DNA of 64,000 nucleotides from Byssochlamys sp. IMV 00236 (lineage: Eukaryota > Ascomycota > Eurotiomycetes > Eurotiales > Thermoascaceae), in contig MSJH02000699.1 in NCBI GenBank assembly GCA_001931875.2, positions 62,001-126,000 of the forward strand, in the 5' to 3' direction. The translations under genes were made by a program, and so were the position numbers. Under the pieces are notes generated by a model. The model was not told where the DNA came from. It ran no database searches and worked only from the letters and a program-made list of their open reading frames with translations. Positions within the stretch are counted from its first letter, which is position 1. Each line of letters starts with the position of its first letter. Below, in pieces: positions 44,303-51,136 of the stretch.

Positions 44303-44715
44303 ATGTCATCTGGTAGCGGAGACAGCAGCGAACAGAACCGTACGTCTATTATTATTCGCGTCTCCTTTCCTATGACTCTTGAGACCTTGAGCCACCCCCC
44401 CTTTCCCAATCTTGTATACCTCGAACTACCAAACTAACCGATCCAGCCACCGTCCTAGGCGGTATCACCGACACTCTAGGCAAGACCGTCGGCGGCGTCA
44501 CGAACACTGTCGGTGGTATCGTCAGTGGCCTAGGCAAGACGGCTGGCGATGCGACTCAAGGCCTTGGAAACACAGTCAGCGGCGCCAGTCAAGGATTAGG
44601 AAACACGACCAAGGGCGTTGGTCAAACTGCCAACGACACGATCAGCGGTCTTGGTGAAGGACAAGATAGGAAGGTCGAACAGTCTACTGAGAACCCTCTG
44701 GGACTGAGTCGTTGA
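44303..44715 (+). CDS. Small LEA-like 11-residue repeat protein
   Basis: Predicted exons 44303-44339 and 44447-44715 join in phase to 101 aa. After a short hydrophilic start (MSSGSGDSSEQN) the sequence is almost all Gly, Thr, Val, Asn and Ala in units of about 11 residues: GLGKTAGDATQ, GLGNTVSGASQ, GLGNTTKGVGQ. The pattern resembles group-3 late-embryogenesis-abundant (LEA) and related desiccation or heat-stress proteins, which are disordered in solution and fold into amphipathic helices. No signal peptide or membrane segment. Glycine content is higher than in classic LEA proteins, so the assignment is by pattern only. It stands alone in the accessory block. Confidence 0.7.
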
Positions 44716-45644
44716 GTGAGGGCTGTGAATGTGAATTTGTTTGGACCGGAATTTCCCTGGGGTCTAATAGGATGCCCCCGACTGTATTATTAGTATTGTG
44801 TGGAGGAAAGGATTACGATCGCTTTTGTGATTGATTTCTTTTTGTTCTTCTGAGGATTAGCCCCAATATCAATACCAATGTGACATGATGTCTTAATAAC
44901 GGCTGAATCGCGCCTCGATCCAAGTATATCCCTTTCTTGCACCACAATATGCTCGACAGACAGTTGAGAGGTAGTGTAACCGCGCCTCTCTTGTTACATT
45001 TGAATCATTATATGCTGGTGTAGTCTTCTAACTGGACTGGAGTTCGAATGTAGCATTAGTATAATAACTGGGGGGGAAAGGTGTCCGCTAGTGATTATCA
45101 CTTTCCGCATCACAACTTCCTAAATAGGAAATAGAAAACAACATCAAGAGCTACACCGAATAATGCCAACTCTCAGGGTTAAAAAAAAGAGCAAAAAGCT
45201 CACACCCTCAGACTGGTTTTCTGGTGGTAGTCAGTCTGAAGGTGCTACGAAAACCCCGCCCGGGCAGGGTTTTACTGATCCCCTGATCCCCAGAGGGAGT
45301 CACTGGAGGGTTCCCTCCGGGGATCGAACAGAGGAGCTCTGGTAGTGCAGTACAGGTAGTCTAGAGTTATCTCCACTGCACTACCAGGGCTCCTCTGTTC
45401 GATGAGAGATCTTTGCTTGGAATTATATGGGGACTGGTGAATGGGGGACACCGGGGACCCTTCTTTGTTGTCACGTGGGTCGAGTATTAGGCACAACAAT
45501 GGGTTATGACCTTCGGTGTCTCCTGGGCGATCGTGTGAAGTGGCAAGTCGTTAAAGATCTGACCTGAAGAGAAGGTATGCAAATCAGAATCGTCACATTG
45601 TTATGTAGCGCTACAATACAGATCCCAGTCAAGACATAGTTTGT
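44716..45644. other. Spacer carrying a row of hairpins
   Basis: Between the LEA-like gene (+) and the enoyl-CoA hydratase gene (-). Apart from the hairpin row at 45189-45403 I see no gene; the 60-codon open frame across the hairpins is most likely chance. Confidence 0.5.
45189..45403. repeat. Row of five adjacent hairpins (possible fold-back element)
   Basis: Five inverted repeats follow each other: 45189-45201 (GAGC, A5 loop, GCTC); 45203-45215 with 45232-45244 (12 of 13 pairs, 16-nt loop); 45250-45261 with 45262-45273 (11 of 12, no loop); 45285-45298 with 45312-45325 (13 of 14, 13-nt loop); 45323-45350 with 45376-45403 (27 of 28, 25-nt loop). Every mismatch in the four longer stems is explained by one C-to-T or G-to-A transition. 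No terminal inverted repeats or target-site duplication were identified around the array. Confidence 0.85.
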
Positions 45645-46716
45645 CTATTCGTTTGACCATTCCGGTTTCTTCTTCTCCGCGAAAGCCGTCATTCCTAAGC
45701 CTCGTTAGCCGCGGATTGTCCAAGTCAAGGCATATGTACTTACCGATCTTCTGATCCCTGGTGCCAAATAGAGCGTGGAAGATGCGTCTCTCATACTCAA
45801 CACCTTCCTTGAGAGAGAGCTCCTGGCTCTTGTTGACTACTTCCTTGGCAGCCAGAACGGCGACCTTGCTGTAGCTGGCAATTGTCTCGGCAGTCTTAAG
45901 GGCTTCCTCCAGGAGTTCGTCCTTTCCACCGTCGACCACCTTAGCAGCGACACCCCATTCGCCGGCCTCCTTTCCGCTGAAGTTCTTGCCCGTCAGGATG
46001 AGCTCCATAGCCTTGCTCTTCCCCACGGCTTGTGTCAGGCGCTGAGAGCCACCACCACCGGGAATGATACCCAGCTTGATCTCTGGCTGGCCAAATGTGG
46101 CCTTCGAGGTGCAGTAGATAATGTCACACATGAGGGCCAGCTCACAGCCACCACCCAAAGCATAGCCAGAAACAGCCGCGATAACCGGCTTGCGAATATT
46201 GTTTGCCAGATGGGACCAGGGAGCGATGAAGTTGTTGGAGAAGGCAGAGGAGAAGGTCAGAGGAGCCATTTCCTTGATATCGGCACCGGCTTTGGAAGCA
46301 CACCAGGGTTAGCAAATGTGCCGCATACGAAGGGCATATTCTTGAGAGCATACCGGCAAAGGCCTTTTCGCTGCCAGTTATGATGATGGCGCCAATATCC
46401 TTGGCCTCCTCGTACTTGGAAAGTGCATCGTTGATCTCCTTGAAAACGGAGCTGGAGAGGGCATTGAGAGCCTTGGGACGGTTGAGAGTAACTTAATTCA
46501 AGTCAGCAACTCAATTGCTGTCATATTCATTTCTAGAGAAGCTTCTATGGGTTCTATATGCTTACTGAGACCAACACCTGGCCTTGGTGTTTCCGTCAGG
46601 ATGTTCTCGTAAGCTGGTGCAGCAGAAGAGTACGGCCTGCCGACTCTAGAAAGGTAGGATGTCAAAGGGACGGCCGTCTTCGAGGCGACCAGCCGAGAAC
46701 AGCGCCTAGCAAACAT
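45645..46716 (-). CDS. Mitochondrial enoyl-CoA hydratase (short-chain)
   Basis: Predicted exons 46716-46566, 46491-46354, 46289-45744 and 45694-45645 join in phase to 294 aa. The first ~35 residues ([13 protein letters not shown]...) are rich in Arg, Ser and Ala without acidic residues, a typical mitochondrial presequence. The crotonase fold shows [11 protein letters not shown], the oxyanion-hole region ADIKEM, and the catalytic glutamates in [16 protein letters not shown] and [15 protein letters not shown]. It hydrates 2-trans-enoyl-CoA in mitochondrial beta-oxidation or branched-chain amino-acid breakdown. A TTG just upstream is in frame, but ATG at 46716 is the better start. Divergent from RER1, with 492 bp between starts. 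Confidence 0.92.
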
Positions 46717-49132: not shown

Positions 49133-51136
49133 TTATTTCGGTCCTCTCTTCAGTTGTGAGTCCATATACTGATCGGAGATGTAAACAGGGGGATCCTTAA
49201 GACGGTATCCCAGAAGTACTCGCTGCCTAGCAGCCTCGCGTGATTCCTCGGATGGACAGGTCCGGAATCCATCGCTTTTGCTCTGGAGATATGCAACTTT
49301 GCACTCTGTCTGGCGGAACAGTCTGGTCAATTTTTCTCGGTGCTTTCTGAGCATTTGGCGTAGAGAGCTTCGAGGAATGTTAATGTCGTTCACTGTTTGC
49401 AGGAGAAGCTCAGGTAGTCCCTCTAGTAAGCACTTCTCGATCACTTCTTTTTCAACTTTCTCAATGATGGCCTCGAGACAGAGTCCAAAGTAAAGCCGCG
49501 AGCAACATAAGATGTTCGAGTAGACGGCTTCTCGGTGTTCGGGTCCATGGGCCCCGTCCAGGCATTTTTGTAGTTTCTCCAGCTCGCGCTGTAACTCTGG
49601 AGTTACTGCGACAGTCTCTGGTTGACAGCGCGACGCAGCTAGCTCACGCACTTTAGCCAGAGCAGCTGTCTCCCTCGATCTGAAAGCCGGCGCTAAAACA
49701 CGTCTATCAAGGATTTTTGAAACCTGTGGGACTGTAGTGTGCTGAAGAATTTCCTGCATGAGAAATAAGCAACCATGTGTCGCTCTATACATGCACTCTT
49801 CGATGATGAGTAACCAGTCGGCAGTTAGAATAGAAATGAATTTCTCGACTAGCCGCCTGCCTTCGAGATCTGACGAGCGCTGACTCGAGTCTTGTTGGAG
49901 TAGAAGGTCAAATTGTTGTGTAAGCTCTGCTCCTTCTTGCGACGCTGCGAGGAAGTCACTAATGGAGGACGAGGGAGCATTTTCATCCAGCAGCCTTGTT
50001 TCCTGAGCTCTCCTCTGCAGGCGAGATCGGAGATAGTGCTTAGTTTCATCGATAGTGAGTTTCAACCGTCGAAGATTGAAGTCCCCTATCTCAAAGAAAG
50101 AATCCTCGTATTCGCCATTTATTGAAGTTTTCACCAACGTTTCGAAGCGGCGACAGAGACCCGTAAGATGTTGTCGCGCTTTGCTTTCGTCACATTCATA
50201 AGCTTGTTTACCGTAATGTTCCCCTTTTGCTTCAATTTCTTTCGCAAGTCTGGGGAAACTAGTTAAGAACTGAGCTTCACACAAGTCTAGAAGTTTGACC
50301 CTTAATGATTCAAATCCCATGTCGATTCTTTGCAGACAGTTCCACGGCGGAGTCCAAACGATGGAAGATATGTCGGTGGACGATGCAATTGGGGAAGGCA
50401 CAATATGCCAACTCAGTGAGCCATGAGACGTACGCCGCTTTGCGAAGAGAGATCTCAGATAGTCAAGGGATATTTGGGGATCCACTGTCTCTGGTTTGAC
50501 GATAACGTTGATCGTACGATTGGGAGGAAGTCCAGAGGCATCGACGTCAATGGAGATGTCACTCCCAGGGATGGCATTGAGTACGACTGTCCCCTCATTC
50601 GACACGTATCGTTGCATCAGCTTATCAACAATGGCGTCCTTTATCGAATCACCGGTCTTTCCTGGGAGATCAACGAATGCGATGTGTGGTAGGCCAAAGC
50701 CACACATTTCGATTCTCAGGATATGTTCGCCTGTGACCCATGCTCTGAGATCTCGCGCTTGCGTCTCAGCGTTCTGAATAAGCATCGGGATATCGAAATC
50801 CTCCTCGAGTTCCAACCTGATGGCAGGAGGTGCCTTTGATCTAACTTCCGACGTAAGAAAGATCATAGTCATATGTCTGGACCGTGAGTCGGATTGTCGC
50901 AGAACGATTTCTGTCGCAATAGCGGTACCATCTAGCCCAGTAGGAAACGGAATGCCTGACAGTGCTCTCAGAAGTGAGCTTTTCCCACATCCTTTCTTAC
51001 CCAGCGCCACAACATATGGCACATCCGCCTCCTTAAGGAGTGGTGACTTAGGAAATCTTCCTAGGAAATCCTGAGTGAGGCACCCATATGGATGGTGCCC
51101 AACCGCGTTTGAGAGTTCTGACAGTTGTGACTGCAT
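49133..51136 (-). CDS. Divergent dynamin-like large GTPase
   Basis: A single 667-codon frame without introns. The GTPase domain has a P-loop GKKGCGKSS near residues 47-55 followed by LLRALSGIPFPTG, a switch I candidate ATEIVLRQ, the switch II DLPG near residue 157, and an N/TKxD-equivalent VKPETVD, all in dynamin order. A helical middle region and a C-terminal assembly-type helical region follow; there is no PH domain, proline-rich tail or membrane segment. The layout is Mx/fungal dynamin-like. The P-loop has GKKGCGKS in place of the usual GDQSSGKS, and the G4 aspartate position is shifted (PETVD against KPDLVD). Many moulds carry extra, poorly characterised dynamin-like genes. Cellular role is unknown. 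Confidence 0.82.
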   Translation of the reverse strand: MQSQLSELSNAVGHHPYGCLTQDFLGRFPKSPLLKEADVPYVVALGKKGCGKSSLLRALSGIPFPTGLDGTAIATEIVLRQSDSRSRHMTMIFLTSEVRSKAPPAIRLELEEDFDIPMLIQNAETQARDLRAWVTGEHILRIEMCGFGLPHIAFVDLPGKTGDSIKDAIVDKLMQRYVSNEGTVVLNAIPGSDISIDVDASGLPPNRTINVIVKPETVDPQISLDYLRSLFAKRRTSHGSLSWHIVPSPIASSTDISSIVWTPPWNCLQRIDMGFESLRVKLLDLCEAQFLTSFPRLAKEIEAKGEHYGKQAYECDESKARQHLTGLCRRFETLVKTSINGEYEDSFFEIGDFNLRRLKLTIDETKHYLRSRLQRRAQETRLLDENAPSSSISDFLAASQEGAELTQQFDLLLQQDSSQRSSDLEGRRLVEKFISILTADWLLIIEECMYRATHGCLFLMQEILQHTTVPQVSKILDRRVLAPAFRSRETAALAKVRELAASRCQPETVAVTPELQRELEKLQKCLDGAHGPEHREAVYSNILCCSRLYFGLCLEAIIEKVEKEVIEKCLLEGLPELLLQTVNDINIPRSSLRQMLRKHREKLTRLFRQTECKVAYLQSKSDGFRTCPSEESREAARQRVLLGYRLKDPPVYISDQYMDSQLKRGPK

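What the first reader, a model, noticed from the sequence alone, without database searches (positions are those of the whole stretch)
45189..45403. Five back-to-back hairpins with transition-only stem mismatches
The sequence shows five adjacent inverted repeats, the last with 28-bp arms, packed in 215 bp with almost no spacer. Each of the four longer stems has exactly one mismatch and all four are explained by a C-to-T or G-to-A change, as expected of RIP or cytosine deamination on once-perfect stems. No gene explains it. It could be a fold-back mobile element, a replication/recombination structure, or a structured RNA.
Basis: partly seen in the sequence, partly recalled or inferred. Interest (0 to 1): 0.75.

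Follow-up and report, generated by a model that had tools for sequence, protein, structure and literature searches.

The report
Probable RNA polymerase III hairpin-RNA gene
A fungal intergenic stretch packed with five hairpins looks like a complete, undescribed gene for a small structured RNA made by RNA polymerase III, possibly a source of microRNA-like small RNAs.

Summary
The five hairpins are real. Among 4820 windows of 230 nt from the 64-kb window (Paecilomyces variotii or a close relative) and the loci then held, this stretch folds most strongly for its GC; z is -11.35 on the minus strand. On that strand the block coincides with a complete RNA polymerase III unit: TATAAT (45427-45422), A box (45383-45373), B box (45329-45321) and T8 (45188-45181). 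With the TATA-to-start distance of this genome's predicted U6 and SRP genes the RNA would start at about 45399, at the foot of the 28-bp stem; the last stem abuts T8. The full signal combination appeared once in 600 shuffled windows. Three of the four internal transition mismatches are G-U pairs in this RNA; none fits the CpA context of RIP. It is single-copy at the sensitivity used and reaches no Rfam gathering score. Best reading: an orphan Pol III hairpin-RNA gene whose long stem may feed Dicer, as Neurospora Pol III milRNA precursors do. Transcription and conservation could not be tested.

The parts
45422..45427 (-). TATA-like element TATAAT, starting 44 bp upstream of the A box
   Evidence: Predicted U6 and SRP genes of the same genome have TATAAA starting 28 bp before the first base of the family match; SRP TATA-to-A-box distance is 40.
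45399..45399 (-). Predicted transcription start (A; range about 45399-45403)
   Evidence: Inference from the TATA distance of the U6 and SRP loci. Not shown experimentally.
45373..45383 (-). Pol III A box TAGTGCAGTGG, in the 5' arm of hairpin I
   Evidence: exact match to the textbook consensus TRGYNNARNNG (recalled). The SRP gene here has TAGTCTAGTGG.
45321..45329 (-). Pol III B box GTTCGATCC, at the junction of hairpins I and II, 54 bp from the A box
   Evidence: exact match to GWTCRANNC (recalled). The 20 nt around it match one tRNA gene (L022) in 17 of 20 positions.
45323..45403 (-). Hairpin I: 28 Watson-Crick pairs over 29 positions, one mismatch (C-A in minus RNA), 23-nt apical region
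   Evidence: z -10.7 alone.
45285..45325 (-). Hairpin II: 14-position stem with one G-U, 13-nt loop
45250..45273 (-). Hairpin III: 10-position stem with one G-U, 4-nt loop
45202..45245 (-). Hairpin IV: 14 pairs in RNA with one internal and one end G-U, 16-nt loop
45189..45201 (-). Hairpin V: GAGC-TTTTT-GCTC, directly before the T8
45181..45188 (-). T8, predicted Pol III terminator
   Evidence: SRP in this genome is followed by T8 and U6 by T9. T runs of 8 or more occur 6 times in the window, both strands.

Best explanation
The block is a stand-alone RNA polymerase III gene on the minus strand, between two convergent protein genes. An upstream TATA, internal A and B boxes and a T8 terminator would produce an RNA of about 215 nt (about 45399 to about 45185) that is mostly hairpins: a 28-bp stem that contains the A box and abuts the B box, then stems of 14, 10 and 14 pairs, and a terminal mini-hairpin. 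Shown: the sequence signals, their spacing, their coincidence with the block, and the predicted folding. Inferred: transcription, ends and function. Most likely function (about 0.45 given that the gene is real): the long 5' stem is cut by Dicer into microRNA-like RNAs loaded on Argonaute, as for the Pol III-made milRNAs of Neurospora. Stems of 10-14 bp are too short to be canonical Dicer substrates (recalled), so the 3' hairpins would serve stability, termination or protein binding. The confidence given is for the Pol III gene; the first rival shares that gene and differs only in function.
For: Only one A+B pair (25-90 bp apart) exists in the window on either strand, and it is in this block. 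A+B plus TATA 36-50 bp upstream plus T6 or longer within 220 bp came up once in 600 dinucleotide shuffles of the 64-kb window. The predicted start and the T8 bracket the five hairpins almost exactly. The genome's SRP gene has the same layout: TATA, A box at base 13, B box at base 83, T8. The minus strand folds better (z -11.35 versus -8.91) and turns 3 of 4 internal mismatches into G-U. Folding exceeds that of SRP (z -4.3) and MRP (z -5.0) in the same test, and the same structure is predicted at 50 C. The assembly encodes Piwi proteins and, on C137, two RNase III matches each lying in an 866-aa open frame; the Piwi locus on C803 (GC 0.50) and the C137 loci (0.47-0.48) fit the window's composition. 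Neurospora milR-1 to -4 are Pol III transcripts followed by T runs, milR-1 being about 170 nt and intergenic (PMC3547838, passages).
Against: No transcript data and no comparison with a second strain or species could be made. The motif test was designed after seeing the motifs. The A box lies inside an inverted repeat, so motif and repeat are not independent. 3 of 4 G-U is not significant on its own. The U6 control shows TATA and T run but no A-box match, and the MRP control shows none of the boxes in place, so the layout rests on SRP and tRNA genes. Neurospora milR-1 itself has no predicted A or B box. Only one of the five stems is long enough for a canonical Dicer cut. The search with 21 bases of stem I for a further copy or target gave one place with 3 mismatches outside the block, against two for the reversed control pattern.
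Confidence: 0.7

Rival explanations
1. Same Pol III gene, but the RNA acts as a whole structural or regulatory RNA (protein-binding scaffold or decoy) and is not a Dicer precursor. Overlaps with the best explanation; differs in function only.
For: Hairpins II-V are well folded without hairpin I (z -5.3) but too short for canonical dicing (recalled). The promoter layout resembles the genome's SRP gene.
Against: A nearly perfect 28-bp stem is unusual for an RNP scaffold (recalled). No Rfam family reaches its gathering score.
Confidence: 0.33
2. A single-copy tRNA-derived retroposon (SINE) or its relic, like the low-copy AfuSINE2 elements of Aspergillus fumigatus.
For: A and B boxes and T tract. 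The B-box region resembles one tRNA gene (17 of 20). Some AfuSINE2 elements are single-copy by Southern (PMC5063351, passages). AfuSINE2-5d gave a local score of 22 against a null of 16.5, reached by 2 of 200 shuffles (not corrected for four tests; unexplained).
Against: No second copy found and no direct repeat of 7 or more bases on both sides. The tRNA model is not among the 22 matches at E up to 10. Of 4 AfuSINE2 sequences tested, 3 have no excess folding (z 0.3, -0.1, -1.2; the fourth -3.1) and 3 show no similarity.
Confidence: 0.1
3. A structured 3' UTR element of the enoyl-CoA hydratase gene, which runs on the same (minus) strand and whose reading frame ends about 240 bp upstream.
For: Same strand; the gene is ECH (PF00378) and the presumed last exon ends in a stop at 45645.
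Against: Does not explain TATA, A box, B box and T8 in register with the block.
Confidence: 0.08
4. A fold-back or cruciform DNA element, with transitions left by RIP or deamination.
For: The inverted repeats are strong on both strands. P. variotii has active RIP (PMC6300479, passages). 2 of 4 mismatches would fit CpG deamination.
Against: Single copy; 0 of 4 mismatches in CpA; minus-strand Pol III signals unexplained.
Confidence: 0.05

Closest known systems
Neurospora crassa Pol III-transcribed milRNA genes (milR-1 to milR-4)
   Same: Fungal stem-loop RNAs made by Pol III; milR-1 intergenic, primary transcript about 170 nt; T run downstream; TATA-like elements (PMC3547838, passages).
   Different: milR-1 has no predicted A/B box and milR-4 lies among tRNA genes; the Figure 2 legend speaks of putative A and B boxes in the set, so boxes as such are not unique. 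Here TATA, A and B boxes and T8 frame an array of five hairpins. No small RNAs shown here.
SRP (7SL) RNA gene of the same genome (L044)
   Same: TATA, A box (9 of 11 identical), B box, T8, one match in the genome, strongly folded RNA.
   Different: No sequence relation beyond the boxes (local score 16, shuffle mean 17.3); different fold.
AfuSINE2 tRNA-related SINEs of Aspergillus fumigatus
   Same: Low or single copy, Pol III boxes, 140-493 bp (PMC5063351: abstract, section 14 part 1, section 21 and passages).
   Different: Described with target site duplications (the paper says some candidates lack them); 3 of 4 tested do not fold above chance.
MHV68 TMER genes (Pol III, tRNA-like head plus pre-miRNA hairpins)
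   Same: Pol III type 2 promoter followed by hairpins before a T terminator (recalled; only the search listing and starts of abstracts seen).
   Different: Here no tRNA fold is recognised before the hairpins; the boxes lie in and beside the first hairpin. Analogy only.

Membership tests
Pol III gene with internal (type 2) promoter | A box and B box at workable spacing | tested here: met
   Exact consensus matches 54 bp apart; the tRNA genes have 44-55, SRP 65-70.
Pol III gene with internal (type 2) promoter | T-run terminator | tested here: met
   T8 directly after hairpin V.
Pol III gene with internal (type 2) promoter | Transcription by Pol III | not testable with these tools
   No RNA or ChIP data.
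Fungal milRNA precursor | Stem-loop long enough for Dicer | tested here: met
   Hairpin I, 28 pairs over 29 positions; stems II-V are shorter (14 or fewer).
Fungal milRNA precursor | Host has Dicer and Argonaute | tested here: met
   PF02171 on C803, C809, C796 (and on C265/C266/C708); two PF00636 matches in 866-aa frames on C137. Composition checked only for C803, C265, C266, C708, C457, C137, C834 and C511 loci; full-length genes not examined.
Fungal milRNA precursor | 20-24 nt RNAs from one arm, Dicer-dependent | not testable with these tools
   No small-RNA reads available.
SINE | Multiple dispersed copies | tested here: not met
   One place only, at the sensitivity.
SINE | Target site duplication | tested here: inconclusive
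   None of 7 or more bases; 4-6 bp repeats cannot be told from chance.
tRNA or tRNA pseudogene | Cloverleaf | tested here: not met
   ARAGORN 0 genes; RF00005 not among matches at E up to 10.
SRP, U6, RNase MRP RNA | Match to the family model at this locus | tested here: not met
   Best matches lie elsewhere: C545, C613, C825.
RIP-mutated repeat | C-to-T in CpA context of duplicated DNA | tested here: not met
   0 of 4 mismatches in CpA; single copy.

The most novel reading that the evidence does not exclude
A new class of fungal Pol III genes in which the internal promoter is built into the product's own first hairpin, followed by a hairpin array: a self-contained hairpin-RNA gene whose RNA is both Dicer substrate and structured effector, restricted to Paecilomyces or to Eurotiales.
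Probability: 0.2. Interest if true: 0.8.

Novelty: new variant of a known kind. Interest (0 to 1): 0.55.

Why it matters
Pol III transcripts outside the standard set are few and escape poly-A RNA-seq and family scans (general knowledge). A candidate with all promoter parts, in a fungus that can be transformed and crossed (PMC6300479, abstract passage), makes it directly testable whether Pol III milRNA or structural RNA genes extend beyond Neurospora to the Eurotiales.

Tried and rejected
Rfam at gathering score over the window: 0 matches. At E up to 10 on 45100-45500: 22 matches, all below their gathering scores, many of them microRNA models that reward any long hairpin; not taken as membership. 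tRNA search: none. Common origin with SRP RNA: rejected (score 16, null 17.3, 417 of 500 shuffles reach it); U6 likewise (224 of 500). Common origin of hairpins I-IV with one another: no clear signal in 6 pairs (lowest: 39 of 300 shuffles reaching the score). Similarity to tRNA: 12 of the 30 fetched tRNA loci were tested; the best three are shown (0, 16 and 20 of 500 shuffles reaching the score); the best has 17 of 20 identity around the B box, in good part the B box itself; kept as a lead only. Exact 20-21-base words in genome contigs and viral contigs: 0, not informative since these collections are not fungal. Six stem words in 5.39 million papers: 0. Papers on P. variotii small RNAs: one search listed 8 of 3,183 papers, none of the 8 holding the species name; inconclusive. 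A search for 7SK RNA with fungal terms gave one paper, on telomerase. Fungal structured-RNA survey PMC5640933: 12 passages seen, none describing such a motif. Re-analysis of fungal hairpins PMC9757828: 12 passages seen only.

Limits: the genome search skips common words and scores only best candidates; the consensus boxes are recalled; thresholds (T6, TATA 36-50) were set after seeing the locus; U6 and SRP starts are the first bases of the family matches, not mapped ends. Real-sequence control: among the loci held, A+B pairs outside tRNA genes, SRP and this block were two (L025 at 2068, L041 at 2081), neither with a TATA in range, the first with a T10 downstream. Of the three non-tRNA Pol III controls, MRP showed none of these boxes in place (only the best of its four matches was examined) and U6 no A box.

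Full report
What is there. From low to high plus-strand coordinates the stems are V (4 bp), IV (13 positions), III (10), II (14) and I (29 positions, 28 Watson-Crick pairs); the four longer ones have one internal mismatch each, all of transition type. Folded alone, the minus strand of 45180-45410 gives -124.6 kcal/mol (z -11.35) and the plus strand -120 (z -8.91); 0 of 200 shuffles match either. Against 4820 windows of 230 nt from this window and the loci then held, windows over the block take the first five places after correction for GC. In one test (100 shuffles each) the putative transcript scores z -10.9 against -4.3 for SRP RNA, -5.0 for RNase MRP RNA, 0.9 for U6 and -1.2 to -1.9 for three tRNAs of the same genome; without hairpin I it still scores -5.3.

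Where it is. A neighbouring 667-aa dynamin-like protein is 98% identical to one of P. variotii DTO021C3, so the window is P. variotii or a close relative. The block lies between convergent genes: a plus-strand reading frame ending at 44715 (no family search succeeded for it) and, on the minus strand, an enoyl-CoA hydratase gene (PF00378) whose presumed last exon ends at 45645 (exon limits by eye). No ORF of note covers the block.

The Pol III unit. The minus strand holds an A box (TAGTGCAGTGG, 45383-45373) and a B box (GTTCGATCC, 45329-45321), both exact to the textbook consensus (recalled). It is the only A+B pair 25-90 bp apart on either strand of the window. TATAAT starts 44 bp above the A box and T8 lies at 45188-45181. 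The genome's predicted SRP gene has TATAAA 40 bp above its A box (TAGTCTAGTGG at base 13), a B box at base 83 and T8 at its end; its predicted U6 gene has TATAAA at the same distance from its first base as SRP, a T9, and no A-box match. Applying that TATA distance (28 bp) puts the start at 45399, within the first bases of the 5' arm of hairpin I, while the last base of hairpin V abuts the T8. The combination (A+B, TATA 36-50 bp above, T6 or longer within 220 bp) occurred once in 600 shuffles of the whole window, both strands; A+B alone occurred 734 times in those 600, so the boxes by themselves mean little.

Strand. The four internal mismatches become three G-U and one C-A in the minus-strand RNA, and the reverse in the plus-strand RNA; two further G-U pairs extend stems I and IV at their ends on the minus strand. 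This agrees with the promoter strand but is too few to be significant. It offers a simpler account than RIP: if each mismatch was a C-to-T change, the contexts are CpT, CpG, CpG and CpC, none CpA, whereas RIP in this species favours CpA (PMC6300479, passages).

Copies and relatives. The block is found once in the 47.4-Mb assembly by DNA search (the second row is stem I matching its own other arm) and by two 21-base patterns with up to 3 mismatches (one place; the two arms plus one 3-mismatch place elsewhere, with two matches for the reversed control). Neither ARAGORN nor Rfam at its gathering scores names it. No fungal DNA collection was available, so conservation is untested. This is the main gap.

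What it probably does. The reading that fits all parts is an orphan Pol III RNA gene (0.7). A Dicer substrate is the most likely use of the 28-bp stem: the assembly has Piwi proteins and a Dicer-like pair of RNase III domains, with fitting composition where measured (C803, C137), and the main milRNAs of Neurospora are Pol III products followed by T runs (PMC3547838, passages). Against this, the other stems are too short for canonical dicing, and milR-1 lacks A and B boxes. A whole-RNA structural role is therefore kept at 0.33; it shares the Pol III gene and differs in function. SINE, 3' UTR and DNA fold-back readings fit less well, for the reasons in the rival list.

Novelty. Pol III ncRNA genes and Pol III milRNA genes in fungi are known kinds. 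A gene whose promoter boxes are embedded in the first of an array of five hairpins was not seen in the listings and passages of the papers searched, which are limited to an open-licence library.

Noticed in passing
G000 contigs C172, C219, C265, C266, C276, C382, C383, C457, C708 and others: The 47.4-Mb assembly holds loci of about 30-41% GC with their own tRNA, Piwi and RNase III genes, some in copies with equal scores (C265/C266/C708; C276/C382/C383), beside loci of 44-52% GC; it may be a mixture of P. variotii with a second eukaryote.
   Followed up: partly
window 49133-51136 (-): Dynamin-like GTPase (PF00350): of 12 proteins found, the 5 from Paecilomyces have 72-98% identity and the other 7 have 26% or less.
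   Followed up: no
L043, L044 and tRNA loci: Predicted U6 and SRP genes of this genome both have TATAAA at the same distance from the first base, and some tRNA genes have a TATA 36-50 bp above the A box; useful for finding other Pol III genes here.
   Followed up: partly
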